The notes below the pieces were generated by a model, which saw only the letters and a list, made by a program, of their open reading frames with translations, ran no database searches and had not been told where the DNA came from. A DNA stretch of 36,402 nt, taken from NCBI GenBank assembly GCA_023382435.1, contig JAHDVS010000028.1:1-36402 (forward strand). The letters are read 5' to 3'. Source of the DNA: Thermoleophilia bacterium (GTDB taxonomy: Bacteria > Actinomycetota > Thermoleophilia > Gaiellales > Gaiellaceae). Shown here piece by piece: positions 194 through 5,161 of the stretch. A program made the position numbers and the translations under genes. Each line of letters begins with the position of its first letter. The stretch's first letter is position 1.

Positions 194-646
194 TTACGCC
201 GCGGCGCGGCTGGCGACGCGGTCGGTCTCGAGGTGCTGGTGCGACGGGCAGTACTCGCGATCGGGCAGCGGGGTGCGCTGGCACGCCTTGCCTTTGCGCG
301 TCGTGGCGCGGCACCGTGCGACGCCGCCGTCGAACGCGCCCGCTTCGATCTGCTCGCCGATGAACGCGACCGCGGCGCCGATCCCCTGGCTGCAGGCCCA
401 GGAGACCTGCGCCTGAGCCGTGATCGGGAAGTAGCGCCGGATGTCGGCGAACAGCGTCCGTTCCGGGTGCGCGAAGTAGCGCGGGTCGCGCGCCAGGCGC
501 TCGACGGTCTCCTCGCAGGCCGCGAGCACGGCGCGGCGGTACTCGAGCCTGGTCGCCGGGCTCGCGTACGGGTCGATGATGTCCTTGATCGACCGGTAGA
601 TGGCCCGGGAGTACTGATACATGGCGGCGACGACCTTCTCGTTCAT
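194..646 (-). CDS. hypothetical protein with C-terminal Cys3-His putative zinc-binding tail
   Basis: A 150-residue protein I cannot assign to a function. ATG at 646 is preferred because GAGGG stands a few bases upstream; a TTG at 691 would add 15 residues without support. The first ~110 residues look helical and soluble, with no signal peptide or membrane segment. The tail has C-x9-C-x10-C-x2-H (CRATTRKGKAC ... YCPSH), a pattern seen in small uncharacterised zinc-binding proteins of bacteria and phages that carry 'CRATTRKGxxC' modules. It sits upstream of the WYL regulator on the same strand, with 57 bases between them. Its own upstream region holds the striking inverted repeats at 694-759. 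Role unknown; control by the repeats is inference. Confidence 0.65.
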   Translation of the reverse strand: MNEKVVAAMYQYSRAIYRSIKDIIDPYASPATRLEYRRAVLAACEETVERLARDPRYFAHPERTLFADIRRYFPITAQAQVSWACSQGIGAAVAFIGEQIEAGAFDGGVARCRATTRKGKACQRTPLPDREYCPSHQHLETDRVASRAAA

Positions 647-693
647 GATCCCTCGTCGGAGTATGGCGGTTGGCAGATGAAACTCCTGCAAAG

Positions 694-726
694 AACCGTT
701 AAGCGCAGGTTAAGCGCTTAACGGTT
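694..726. promoter_or_regulatory. nested inverted and direct repeats, probable operator
   Basis: Two perfect 12-base arms, AACCGTTAAGCG (694-705) and CGCTTAACGGTT (715-726), flank nine bases. Inside, GTTAAGCGCTTAAC (709-722) is itself a perfect 14-bp palindrome, and GTTAAGCGC occurs as a direct repeat at 698 and 709, exactly 11 bp apart. The element is much richer in AT than its surroundings and lies upstream of the minus-strand gene starting at 646. The 11-bp direct spacing suits OmpR/PhoB-type regulators; the dyad suits a dimeric repressor. Which protein binds is unknown. Confidence 0.5.
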
Positions 727-727
727 A

Positions 728-759
728 GTAACAGCTTACATGGTTCGAGCGCCTGTTAC
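728..759. repeat. second inverted repeat GTAACAG/CTGTTAC
   Basis: GTAACAG (728-734) and its exact complement CTGTTAC (753-759) are separated by 18 bases, directly beside the larger palindrome at 694-726. No gene overlaps them; the USP gene ends at 799 on the same strand. It could be a second operator or the terminator stem of the USP transcript, but the loop is long and there is no T-tract. Confidence 0.35.
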
Positions 760-798
760 AAACTCCGAGGCCGGGCGGCACGTCTCCCGGTGGGGCCG

Positions 799-1239
799 TC
801 AGGCGCTGGCGCGGGGCTCGACGCGCACCATGCGGTCCTCGCCGACCACGAGCACGGCGCAGGGCGCGCTCTCGGCGAGGCGGTGGCTGACGCTGCCGAG
901 CAGGAGCCGCGCCACCGGGCCGCGCCCTCTCGTCCCGGTCACGATCACGTCGAACCCGCCTTCCCGGGCGAGCTCGACCAGGCGCTCGACGGGCTCGCCG
1001 TGGGCGATCTCCATCTCCGCCTCGAGGCCGCGCTCGCGAAGGTAGGCGTGCGCGCGAGCGACATCCTGGTGGGCGTGGGGCGCCATCCCCACGTGCCCTC
1101 CGGCCTTTGACGCCTGCGCGTCGAGCGGCACGACGCTCGCGATCGTGACGATCGCCCCCTCGCTACGGGCCAGGCGTGCGGTCTCCTCGAGCGCGGGCAA
1201 GCTGTGCTCGAAACCGTCGTAGGCAAGCAGCAGCTTCAT
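799..1239 (-). CDS. universal stress protein (UspA family)
   Basis: A 146-residue single-domain protein of normal Usp length. It begins MKLLLAYDGFEHS, the usual first strand with the Asp that contacts ATP, and carries the nucleotide-binding signature GTRGRG...LLLGSVS near residues 109-124, followed by the closing strand CAVLVVGED. Usp proteins of this G-x-x-G type bind ATP and accumulate under growth arrest or stress; the specific stress here is unknown. The start at 1239 is strongly supported by AAGGAGG eight bases upstream. A sigma70-like promoter (1291-1319) and GC-rich repeats lie upstream. It appears monocistronic: the next minus-strand gene starts 152 bases beyond its end. Confidence 0.9.
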   Translation of the reverse strand: MKLLLAYDGFEHSLPALEETARLARSEGAIVTIASVVPLDAQASKAGGHVGMAPHAHQDVARAHAYLRERGLEAEMEIAHGEPVERLVELAREGGFDVIVTGTRGRGPVARLLLGSVSHRLAESAPCAVLVVGEDRMVRVEPRASA

Positions 1240-3054: not shown

Positions 3055-3765
3055 ATGAGCCAGGACGGAAGAACGCAGACCGTGCTCGTGGTCGAGGACG
3101 AGGAGAGCATCGCCTCCTTCATCGCCATGTACCTGCGCAAGGGCGGCTTCGGGGTCTCCGTCGCGGGCAGCGGCGAGGAGGCGCTCGCGAAGGCGGCAAC
3201 CGAGCGCCCGAGTCTGATCGTGCTCGATCTCGGTCTACCCGACCTCGACGGCATCGACGTGTGCCGCCGGATCCGCCAGGGCTCGGACGTGCCCGTGTTG
3301 ATGCTGACCGCACGCGACGACGACGTCGACAAGATTATCGGCCTCGAGGTGGGGGCTGACGACTACCTCACCAAGCCGTTCAACCCCCGCGAGCTCGTCG
3401 CCCGGGTGAAATCGATCCTCCGTCGGACCGCGCCCTCGCGGCGGCGCCTCGAGACGCAGGCGATCGCCCACGGCGATCTGCTCGTGGATGCGGGAAGGCG
3501 CGAGGCGCGGGTCCGCGGCGAGGAGGTGCAGCTCGCGCCGAAGGAGTTCGACCTGCTCTGGGAGCTGCTCGATCACCGCGGCCTCGTGCTGACCCGCGAC
3601 CAGCTGCTCGAGCGCGTGTGGGGCTACACGTTCGCCGGGGACACGCGCACCGTGGACGTCCATGTCCGCCAGGTGCGGCGAAAGCTCGGCGAGGCCTGCC
3701 CGATCGTGACCGTCTGGGGCGTCGGTTACAAGGTCTCGTCCGAGCCCAAGCCGGCGCCGGCGTAG
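3055..3765 (+). CDS. OmpR/PhoB-family response regulator
   Basis: A 236-residue two-domain regulator of standard length. The receiver domain (about 8-122) has the acidic pair E14/D15, the phosphoacceptor D58 in LIVLDLGLPD, the switch T85 in LMLTARD and K107 in YLTKPF. The C-terminal winged helix (about 140-230) includes LAPKEFDLLWELL, the recognition region DTRTVDVHVRQVRRKL and the wing WGVGYKV, all typical of OmpR/PhoB proteins. All phosphotransfer residues are intact. The cognate kinase gene starts 16 bases downstream. The 11-bp repeats at 2494 are a likely binding site. The signal sensed is unknown. Confidence 0.93.
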   Translation: MSQDGRTQTVLVVEDEESIASFIAMYLRKGGFGVSVAGSGEEALAKAATERPSLIVLDLGLPDLDGIDVCRRIRQGSDVPVLMLTARDDDVDKIIGLEVGADDYLTKPFNPRELVARVKSILRRTAPSRRRLETQAIAHGDLLVDAGRREARVRGEEVQLAPKEFDLLWELLDHRGLVLTRDQLLERVWGYTFAGDTRTVDVHVRQVRRKLGEACPIVTVWGVGYKVSSEPKPAPA

Positions 3766-3781: not shown

Positions 3782-5161
3782 GTGCGGTCGCTCCGGTTCC
3801 GGCTTCCGGCGCTGTTCCTACTCGGCGCGGTCGTCGCCGGGATCGTGACCGCGGTGGTCACGATCCGGCTGTTCCAGGACTACGCGGAGGATCAGACGCT
3901 CGGGGACCTGCGCCGGCAGGCGTCCGGGCTCGCCGCGCTGTACGAGGCGCAGGCGCTGCAGAGCGTCGACGAGGGCACCGCGCCGCCCCGCTTCGCCGCC
4001 CCCCGGCTCGAGCGTGCCTCGGGGGCGCGCCTCTACTACGTGGGCGTCGAGCTGTTCCCCGGTCGCTTCTCGGGCCTGCGGGCGCTCTCCCTGGAGGAGG
4101 CGGGTCTCGAGGCGCTCCCCGCCGCCCAGACGACGATCGAGCTGACGCCGCCCGGCGAGGACCACCCCTACCTCGCGGTCGCCCAGCCGGTGCAGCTCGG
4201 CGGGGAGACGTTCGGCGCGCTCGTCGCCGCCAAGCCGAAGGCGGAGCTGACCGACCGCTGGTTCGTGCTCGCCTGGCGCGGCGGCCTCGCTTTCCTGGGA
4301 GGTCTCGGCGTTGCCGCCGGTCTGTCGCTCTACCTCTCGCGTCGCGTCACCCGCCCCGTGCTCGAGCTGTCGCGGGCCGCCGACGAGGTTGCCGCCGGCA
4401 GGTACGAGACCGCCGTCCCGTCGGTGCGCTCCCGCGACGAGATCGGGCATCTCGCCGACCGCTTCCGTGAGATGACCGGCCGACTCGCCGAGGCGAGCGA
4501 GCTCGAGCGCAACTTCCTGATGACCGTGTCCCACGAGCTGCGCACGCCGCTGACGGCGATCCGCGGCCACGTCGAGGTGCTCCGGGAGGGGCTTGCGGAG
4601 GACGCCGAGGCCCGCGCGGCATCGCTCGAGGTGATCGGGAGGGAAGCCGACCGGCTGTCGCGCCTGGTCGGCGACCTGCTCGACCTGGCGAAGCTCGATG
4701 CCAGGCGGTTCACGCTCGTGCGGGAGGAGGTCGACCTCGGCCGGCTGGTCGAGCAGGCGGCCCAGGCTCTCGGCGAGGAGGCCCGGCGCCGCGGGATCGC
4801 GCTCGAGCGCCGGATCGAGGACGTCCCCGTCGTCGAGACGGACGGGGACCGCGTGCTCCAGATCGTCTCGAACCTGCTCGCGAACGCGCTCCAGTGGACG
4901 CCCGACGGCGGCGCGGTCACGCTCTCGCTCGGGTCGGACGGCGGACGCGTCACCGTCACGGTCGCCGACTCCGGGCCGGGGATCCCGCGCGAGGAGCTGG
5001 AACGGGTCTTCCGCCCGTTCTGGTCGCGCAACGGCCAGGGCACCGGGCTGGGGCTCGCGATCGCGCGCGAGCTGGCGCAGGCGCTCGGGGGCCGGCTCGA
5101 GCTCGAGTCCGAGCTCGGGCGCGGCTCGCGGTTCGTGCTCGCGTTCCCGGCGCGAAGCTAG
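3782..5161 (+). CDS. membrane-bound sensor histidine kinase
   Basis: A 459-residue HPK1-type kinase. Order: short cytoplasmic tip, transmembrane helix about 9-30, extracytoplasmic sensor about 31-160 without a recognisable fold, second helix about 164-186, HAMP linker (LSRRVTRPVLELS) to about 238, dimerisation domain with the phosphorylated H251 in SHELRTP, and an ATPase domain with the N-box (SNLLANALQWTP, around 365), G1 box DSGPGIP and G2 box GTGLGLA. All catalytic motifs are present. Start is GTG at 3782, 16 bases after the regulator's stop. It should phosphorylate the adjacent OmpR-type regulator. The ligand is unknown; the secreted protein encoded first in the operon is a candidate modulator. 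Confidence 0.93.
   Translation: MRSLRFRLPALFLLGAVVAGIVTAVVTIRLFQDYAEDQTLGDLRRQASGLAALYEAQALQSVDEGTAPPRFAAPRLERASGARLYYVGVELFPGRFSGLRALSLEEAGLEALPAAQTTIELTPPGEDHPYLAVAQPVQLGGETFGALVAAKPKAELTDRWFVLAWRGGLAFLGGLGVAAGLSLYLSRRVTRPVLELSRAADEVAAGRYETAVPSVRSRDEIGHLADRFREMTGRLAEASELERNFLMTVSHELRTPLTAIRGHVEVLREGLAEDAEARAASLEVIGREADRLSRLVGDLLDLAKLDARRFTLVREEVDLGRLVEQAAQALGEEARRRGIALERRIEDVPVVETDGDRVLQIVSNLLANALQWTPDGGAVTLSLGSDGGRVTVTVADSGPGIPREELERVFRPFWSRNGQGTGLGLAIARELAQALGGRLELESELGRGSRFVLAFPARS

What the first reader, a model, noticed from the sequence alone, without database searches (positions are those of the whole stretch)
694..759. Dense operator-like repeats upstream of an unknown gene and near a WYL regulator
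Within 66 bases there are a 12-bp-arm inverted repeat, an internal 14-bp perfect palindrome, an 11-bp-spaced direct repeat GTTAAGCGC and a second inverted repeat GTAACAG/CTGTTAC. The AT-rich block stands out sharply. It lies upstream of the gene at 646, whose neighbour is a WYL-type regulator. It could be the regulator's operator or a mobile-element relic.
Basis: seen in the sequence. Interest (0 to 1): 0.5.

Follow-up and report, generated by a model that had tools for sequence, protein, structure and literature searches.

The report
Two-promoter control region, direct-repeat switch
The cluster of short repeats is most likely the control region of a small, widely conserved bacterial gene of unknown function, with two start sites overlapping a row of evenly spaced protein-binding repeats of a well-known type, so it is a new example of a familiar switch rather than a new kind of element.

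Summary
The repeats are real. They lie in the 152-bp gap between gene 197-646(-) and the universal stress protein gene, in a Gaiellales-type (Actinomycetota, Thermoleophilia) metagenome-assembled genome. Read on the gene strand, the block looks like a double promoter. P1: TTTGTAACA-N15-TAAGCT (762-733). P2: two CTTAAC units 11 bp apart (714-698), two weaker units and a -10 box CATACT (665-660). The second inverted repeat is partly P1's -35 region. The 13-bp inverted repeat would be a hairpin at the 5' end of a P1 transcript. TTAACN4SCTTAAC occurs 27 times in 129 genomes of the order (reversed control 1): 7 sites precede gene-646 orthologs, 10 precede htrA. Outside the order, 9 of 36 sites (control 18) precede gene-646 orthologs. 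A profile trained on promoters of the linked two-component operon in other genomes ranks that operon's promoter first and this block second in the window. So it is probably an OmpR/PhoB-family response-regulator operator. The regulator is unresolved: the linked one (3055-3765) is plausible, but no linked ortholog was found in nine outlying genomes that keep the site. WYL and mobile-element ideas are not supported.

The parts
197..646 (-). Target gene: 150-aa protein of unknown function, four predicted long helices plus C-x9-C-x10-C-x2-H; a match in 115 of 129 genomes of the order at E<=0.001
660..665 (-). -10 box of P2 (CATACT); 13 nt lie between it and the start codon at 646, so a P2 transcript would be nearly leaderless (inferred)
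   Evidence: same or similar spacing in relatives and in RR-operon promoters
676..680 (-). Fourth 11-bp unit, weak (TCATC)
   Evidence: position given by the RR-promoter profile
687..691 (-). Third 11-bp unit, weak (TTGCA)
   Evidence: position given by the RR-promoter profile
698..702 (-). Second 11-bp unit TTAAC (direct repeat)
709..713 (-). First 11-bp unit TTAAC (direct repeat)
694..726 (-). 13-bp perfect inverted repeat; in a P1 transcript a hairpin at the very 5' end (stretch 640-727: -32.6 kcal/mol, z -4.85, 1 of 200 shuffles as good)
733..738 (-). -10 box of P1 (TAAGCT)
754..762 (-). -35 region of P1 (TTTGTAACA), conserved upstream of gene-646 orthologs; with its -10 found once in the whole genome
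1..136 (-). N-terminal fragment of the WYL regulator, downstream neighbour, cut by the contig end
2493..2548 (+). Promoter region of the operon secreted protein-RR-HK, same 11-bp-unit layout; no good -10 box in the window's own copy
3055..3765 (+). OmpR/PhoB-family response regulator, candidate regulator of P2 (not proven)
3782..5161 (+). Histidine kinase next to it

Best explanation
The block is the promoter region of gene 197-646(-). It holds two overlapping promoters. P1 (TTTGTAACA-N15-TAAGCT) is a sigma-70-like promoter. P2 lacks a -35 box and instead carries tandem 11-bp units (two strong CTTAAC, two weak) that end 10 bp before a -10 box; an activated OmpR/PhoB-family response regulator would bind them head-to-tail and recruit RNA polymerase. 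Because the two strong units lie at about +14 to +29 of P1 (start taken as 726), the same binding should hinder P1. The palindrome is partly incidental: it is a third, inverted copy of the unit and, in RNA, a hairpin at the 5' end of the P1 transcript. Shown here: sequence, conservation, geometry, shared profile. Inferred: start sites, binding, activation, interference.
For: TTAACN4SCTTAAC: 27 sites in 129 order genomes against 1 for the reversed control; 63 against 19 in 399 class genomes, that is 36 against 18 outside the order (columns summed by hand). By tblastn on the loci of all 63 sites, 16 lie before a gene-646 ortholog, 10 before htrA, 8 before an Rrf2-like gene. In regions fetched by protein, not by motif, 11 of 52 (51 relatives plus the window) hold the pair with at most 1 mismatch; shuffles give 0.14%. 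A profile from 27 RR-operon promoters of other genomes ranks 2493(+) at 22.8 bits and 714(-) at 9.2 bits first and second in the window; next 0.9. Shuffles of the intergenic region reach its score in 14 of 5000 (profile, which included this genome's RR promoter). With that same profile, the part of each site not used to select it (units 3, 4, -10) reaches p<=0.03 in 13 of 16 gene-646 sites. P1: TTTGTNACA occurs 37 times in 389 kb of 53 loci, all 37 upstream of gene 646 on its strand, in 35 loci; in the own genome the whole P1 pattern occurs once, control 0. Published OmpR-family sites have the same 11-bp period: PHO box (PMC4415409, passages), M. tuberculosis PhoP 7+4 bp (PMC4832192, passages), C. 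glutamicum MtrA 8+3 bp (PMC3353115, passages), CiaR TTTAAG-N5-TTTAAG (PMC3091779, passages).
Against: No binding or expression data. 31 of the 52 protein-fetched regions have no pair within 2 mismatches, and with the RR profile only 11 of 52 reach p<=0.02. The plain sigma-70 consensus scan finds no promoter in 600-1300. Units 3 and 4 are weak in the window. The htrA sites share units 1-2, but their downstream part fits the RR profile in only 1 of 10 at p<0.05, while 2 of 8 Rrf2-like sites and one IclR-like site reach p<=0.03. In the own genome, beyond the two exact sites, looser matches are at control level (8 found, control 8, up to 2 mismatches). The profile gives 5.9 bits inside coding sequence of L130. 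29 of the 63 exact sites lie before none of the three gene types.
Confidence: 0.72

Rival explanations
1. The linked response regulator 3055-3765 with kinase 3782-5161 is the protein that binds the block and also its own promoter, so the window holds an autoregulated two-component system and one of its targets.
For: RR and gene 646 lie on one contig in 51 of the 89 genomes for which I had typed a place of both, all 51 within 14.3 kb, 50 of 51 divergent. RR-operon promoters share the 11-bp layout and -10 spacing with this block.
Against: In 38 of those 89 genomes the two are on different contigs, among them all five typed of family f3, in which three genomes have exact sites before gene 646. 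In 9 outlying genomes that keep the site, matches to the RR are at most 52% identical (none at E<=1e-50 in G351), none lies near the gene, and none of the 16 stretches upstream of them (two shorter than 250 bp) holds a TTWAC pair within 2 mismatches. Genomes such as L010/G055 and L031/G062 keep a linked RR but lack P2. Sharing a layout could mean that both are targets of a third regulator.
Confidence: 0.35
2. The perfect inverted repeat matters as RNA: a 5'-terminal hairpin (stabiliser or attenuator) of the P1 transcript. This can be true together with the operator reading.
For: Window hairpin z -4.85. The first 30 nt after P1 in 34 leaders, the window included, have mean z -0.97 and 17 below -1 (about -0.84 without the window, from the same numbers), against -0.19, +0.44 and -0.16 in control windows. 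Hairpin plus T-rich tail in 10 of 34, 3.4 expected.
Against: 17 of 34 leaders have no marked hairpin; over 50 nt the mean z is only -0.71; RNAalifold finds no common pair in 9 leaders that I had picked; the sequences are related; the window hairpin is followed by CTTTG, not a T run, and the terminator scan finds none.
Confidence: 0.3
3. The block is the operator of the WYL regulator encoded downstream.
For: Neighbourhood only: a WYL-type gene follows gene 646 in the window and, beyond dinB, in L003 and L042 (WYL by Pfam in L003, dinB by Pfam in L042, the rest by eye).
Against: No copy of the pair seen by eye in the pre-WYL stretch of the two loci printed; the pair's other main neighbours are htrA genes; 11-bp direct repeats are typical of OmpR-family regulators.
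Confidence: 0.06
4. Mobile-element relic or chance repeats.
For: A 13-bp inverted repeat somewhere in the window is not rare by chance (46 of 200 shuffles).
Against: No dispersed copies; pair, position and spacing recur in relatives.
Confidence: 0.03

Closest known systems
PHO box and other OmpR/PhoB-family response-regulator operators (PhoB, PhoP, MtrA)
   Same: Tandem units in one orientation with an 11-bp period, close upstream of a -10 box; the MtrA consensus (A/G)TAACAAT-N3-(A/G)TAACAAT resembles the TTAAC units (PMC3353115 passages)
   Different: The unit is CTTAAC; the binding protein is unknown; the most widespread target is an uncharacterised gene
CiaR box of streptococci (TTTAAG-N5-TTTAAG)
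   Same: Same 6+5 bp geometry; on the + strand GTTAAG-N5-GTTAAG is nearly the CiaR sequence; htrA is a frequent neighbour of the site here
   Different: In gene orientation the unit reads CTTAAC; different phylum; up to four units; no CiaR ortholog shown
C. glutamicum MprA motif TKTTAAGAAM
   Same: Contains TTAAG; MprA binds before htrA and before its own gene (PMC12113857 passages)
   Different: Described as one loose 10-bp motif, not as an 11-bp direct repeat

Membership tests
OmpR/PhoB-family response-regulator operator | Two or more same-orientation units with an 11-bp period | tested here: met
   Two exact TTAAC units 11 bp apart at 713-698 (-); two more only by profile position
OmpR/PhoB-family response-regulator operator | Fixed spacing to a -10 box | tested here: met
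   -10 box starts 48 nt after the first T; same within 1-2 nt in many, not all, gene-646 and RR-operon promoters printed
OmpR/PhoB-family response-regulator operator | Conserved upstream of orthologs | tested here: met
   16 of 63 exact class-wide sites lie before gene-646 orthologs; yet 31 of 52 protein-fetched regions lack the pair
OmpR/PhoB-family response-regulator operator | Bound by a phosphorylated response regulator | not testable with these tools
   Needs a binding assay
CiaR box | NTTAAG-N5-TTTAAG in promoter orientation, -10 ten nt after the last repeat | tested here: not met
   Gene-strand units read CTTAAC; definition from passages of PMC3091779
WYL regulator operator | Same site before the WYL gene | tested here: inconclusive
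   No pair seen by eye in 2 printed pre-WYL stretches (L003, L042); not counted more widely
Mobile element relic | Dispersed copies in the genome | tested here: not met
   4 copies of GTTAAGCGC, 3 of them here, control 5; 2 exact CTTAACN5CTTAAC sites

The most novel reading that the evidence does not exclude
A class-wide signal-controlled gene: in Thermoleophilia an unnamed protein with a zinc-type Cys/His motif is a standing target of an envelope-stress-type two-component regulon shared with htrA and an RR operon. In Gaiellaceae it acquired a second, gene-specific promoter whose start lies on the regulator's sites, so that the regulator flips transcription from P1 (with a 5' hairpin) to a nearly leaderless P2; later genera dropped P2. 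The window would be a stage with both.
Probability: 0.3. Interest if true: 0.5.

Novelty: new member of a known kind. Interest (0 to 1): 0.35.

Why it matters
It gives a predicted regulatory motif (CTTAAC-N5-CTTAAC, 11-bp period) for a large, mostly uncultivated actinobacterial class, ties it to htrA and to an uncharacterised conserved gene, and offers a possible case of promoter turnover. It makes the unknown gene testable: look for it under conditions that induce htrA.

Tried and rejected
WYL operator and mobile relic: see rivals. Sigma-70 consensus and intrinsic-terminator scan: 0 and 0 found in 600-1300. Rfam: 0 matches in the window, L142, L138, L139 and L013. Common RNA structure of P1 leaders: no consensus pair in 9 picked leaders. 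Function of the target protein: Pfam below cut-offs; NCBIfam HGG_STG domain E 2.5e-4 but below its cut-off; no PDB fold match with E<=0.001.

RR-HK-HtrA operon at C3 of the same genome (L130), looked at as an alternative regulator: gene order like mycobacterial mprAB-pepD (recalled, from no call); its RR scores best with the RpaB, YycF and MtrA models, below their cut-offs; reading by eye I saw no TTAAC pair before it. htrA in one regulon with the RR operon: units 1-2 agree, the downstream part does not; yet the own htrA promoter is the best hit of the RR profile in its 6-kb piece, 8.1 bits, and the tatA site the best in its 5-kb piece at only 0.3 bits.

A tree of 58 proteins puts P2 alone in the outlying groups, P1+P2 in many early-branching Gaiellaceae-like rows and P1 alone mostly in a nested set. 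Six of its rows (L148-150, L154-156) had been chosen by the motif, the program warns of long branches that meet, and L050's best pair is not at the usual place, so the order of events is only suggested. In one search I left out three weak or partial gene-646 matches (G073, G075, G097) and used the 103 strongest RR places, whose printed list was itself cut. Paper searches on the lineage returned 1 and 5 papers, unrelated by their listing; I make no wider claim about the literature.

Full report
Observation. The long inverted repeat has 13-bp arms. Direct repeat, palindrome and long inverted repeat are one thing: three overlapping copies of GTTAAGCGC, two on the + and one on the - strand. Four copies exist in the 2.73-Mb genome, three of them here (control 5). 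By shuffling, the long inverted repeat is rare locally (0 of 5000) but not in a window of this size (46 of 200); the 7-bp second inverted repeat is ordinary (660 of 5000), and 14-bp palindromes are common in the window (27).

Setting. The window is a whole contig (C28) of a 79-contig genome; relatives found by protein are mostly titled Gaiellaceae, Thermoleophilia or Actinomycetota MAGs. The block lies between the universal stress protein gene 799-1239(-) and gene 197-646(-). That gene has a match in 115 of 129 genomes of the order. Its product has no Pfam hit above cut-off, 33 invariant columns in 29 aligned sequences, among them three Cys and two His, a predicted fold of four long helices with mean pLDDT 86, and no PDB match at E<=0.001. 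The WYL regulator is downstream: 45 residues remain on the contig, 84% identical to the start of a 668-aa protein of L003 with WYL and WCX domains.

Conservation. I took 53 relatives by protein and read the upstream DNA where it was held. Two elements recur. First, TTTGTNACA: 37 copies in 389 kb, all 37 upstream of gene 646 on its own strand, in 35 of 53 loci. With TANNNT 13-17 nt further on it is present in 33 of 58 regions. In the own genome that full pattern occurs once, at 762-733, control 0. Second, TTAAC units 11 bp apart: 11 of 52 regions (51 relatives plus the window) hold the pair with at most one mismatch, 21 with at most two; shuffled regions give 0.14% and 3.5% (six motif-selected rows, which all match, are left out of the 52).

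Class-wide pattern scan. TTAACN4SCTTAAC: 27 sites in 129 order genomes, reversed control 1; 63 sites in 399 class genomes, control 19. The loci of all 63 were fetched and searched by tblastn: 16 lie before gene-646 orthologs (7 in the order, 9 of 36 outside), 10 before htrA-type proteases (all in the order; 51% or more identical to the L094 protein, which alone was checked by Pfam), 8 before Rrf2-like genes of one outlying family (name by eye). The other 29 lie before none of these; one precedes an AAA/FtsH-like gene (L101). In the own genome the only other exact site precedes tatA; at up to 2 mismatches the own genome has 8 matches and the control 8.

Geometry and shared profile. In P2 the first T of the pair is 48 nt before the -10 box CATACT. 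Promoters of the operon secreted protein-RR-HK show the same layout with TTTACA/CTTACA units. A 56-bp profile from 27 of those promoters, all from other genomes, gives the RR promoter at 2493(+) 22.8 bits and this block at 714(-) 9.2 bits as the two best places of the window on both strands; the next is 0.9. On the 52 gene-646 regions the profile reaches p<=0.02 in 11. When only the part not used for selecting sites is scored, 13 of 16 gene-646 sites reach p<=0.03, 2 of 8 Rrf2-like sites do, and 1 of 10 htrA sites reaches p<0.05.

Which regulator. RR 3055-3765 is OmpR-family. It lies on the same contig as gene 646 in 51 of 89 genomes with a typed place for both, all within 14.3 kb, 50 of 51 divergent; in the other 38 the contigs differ. 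Against it: in nine outlying genomes that keep the site, matches are at most 52% identical, not near the gene, and none of 16 has a TTWAC pair within 2 mismatches upstream. I hold the operator class fairly likely (0.72) and this particular regulator less so (0.35).

The palindrome. Relatives printed keep the direct repeat but not the palindrome. On a P1 transcript it would be a 13-bp hairpin at the 5' end. P1 leaders tend to fold there too (mean z -0.97 in 34 leaders with the window; controls -0.19, +0.44, -0.16), but half do not and no common structure emerges. It may have an RNA role, be an extra inverted half-site, or both.

Mechanism proposed. Without signal, P1 gives basal expression. With signal, a phosphorylated OmpR-family regulator lines up on the 11-bp units, activates P2 and, sitting at about +14 to +29 of P1 (to about +51 with the weak units), hinders P1. 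This is inferred; for C. glutamicum MtrA, sites near the -10 repress and sites upstream of the -35 activate (PMC3353115, passages).

Known context. An 11-bp period is shared by PhoB, PhoP, MtrA and CiaR sites (passages read). This is a new member of a known kind. New are the motif, its main target and the promoter turnover suggested, not shown, by the tree.

Noticed in passing
L137-L143 (genomes of one outlying family, f9): In most of these loci TTAAC units precede a conserved leader TGGCTGTTGACCTTCAGCCTCCCCAA...; in L139 a short Cys-rich ORF follows. No Rfam match for L138, L139 and L142.
   Followed up: partly
L159, L160, L162-L167: In family f6 the same TTAAC pair lies before an Rrf2-like regulator gene (8 loci), usually with a divergent membrane-anchored protein gene on the other side (by eye).
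   Followed up: partly
L012-L015, L028, L039, upstream of gene 646: A leader of about 50 nt (CGCGGAAGCCGAGT...GGGCTTTGGCCAGTTCGCC...) is nearly identical in these relatives.
   Followed up: no
Own genome C18:20395, C21:4322, C47:2086 (L122, L123, L125): GGGGTCTGACCCCTCAA occurs in all three loci, perhaps an intergenic repeat.
   Followed up: no
L130 (own genome C3:76500-80500): Response regulator, histidine kinase and an HtrA-type protease gene follow one another.
   Followed up: partly
window 197-646: Highly conserved protein without a named family; its C-terminal Cys/His motif resembles the HGGxSTG domain model below cut-off.
   Followed up: partly
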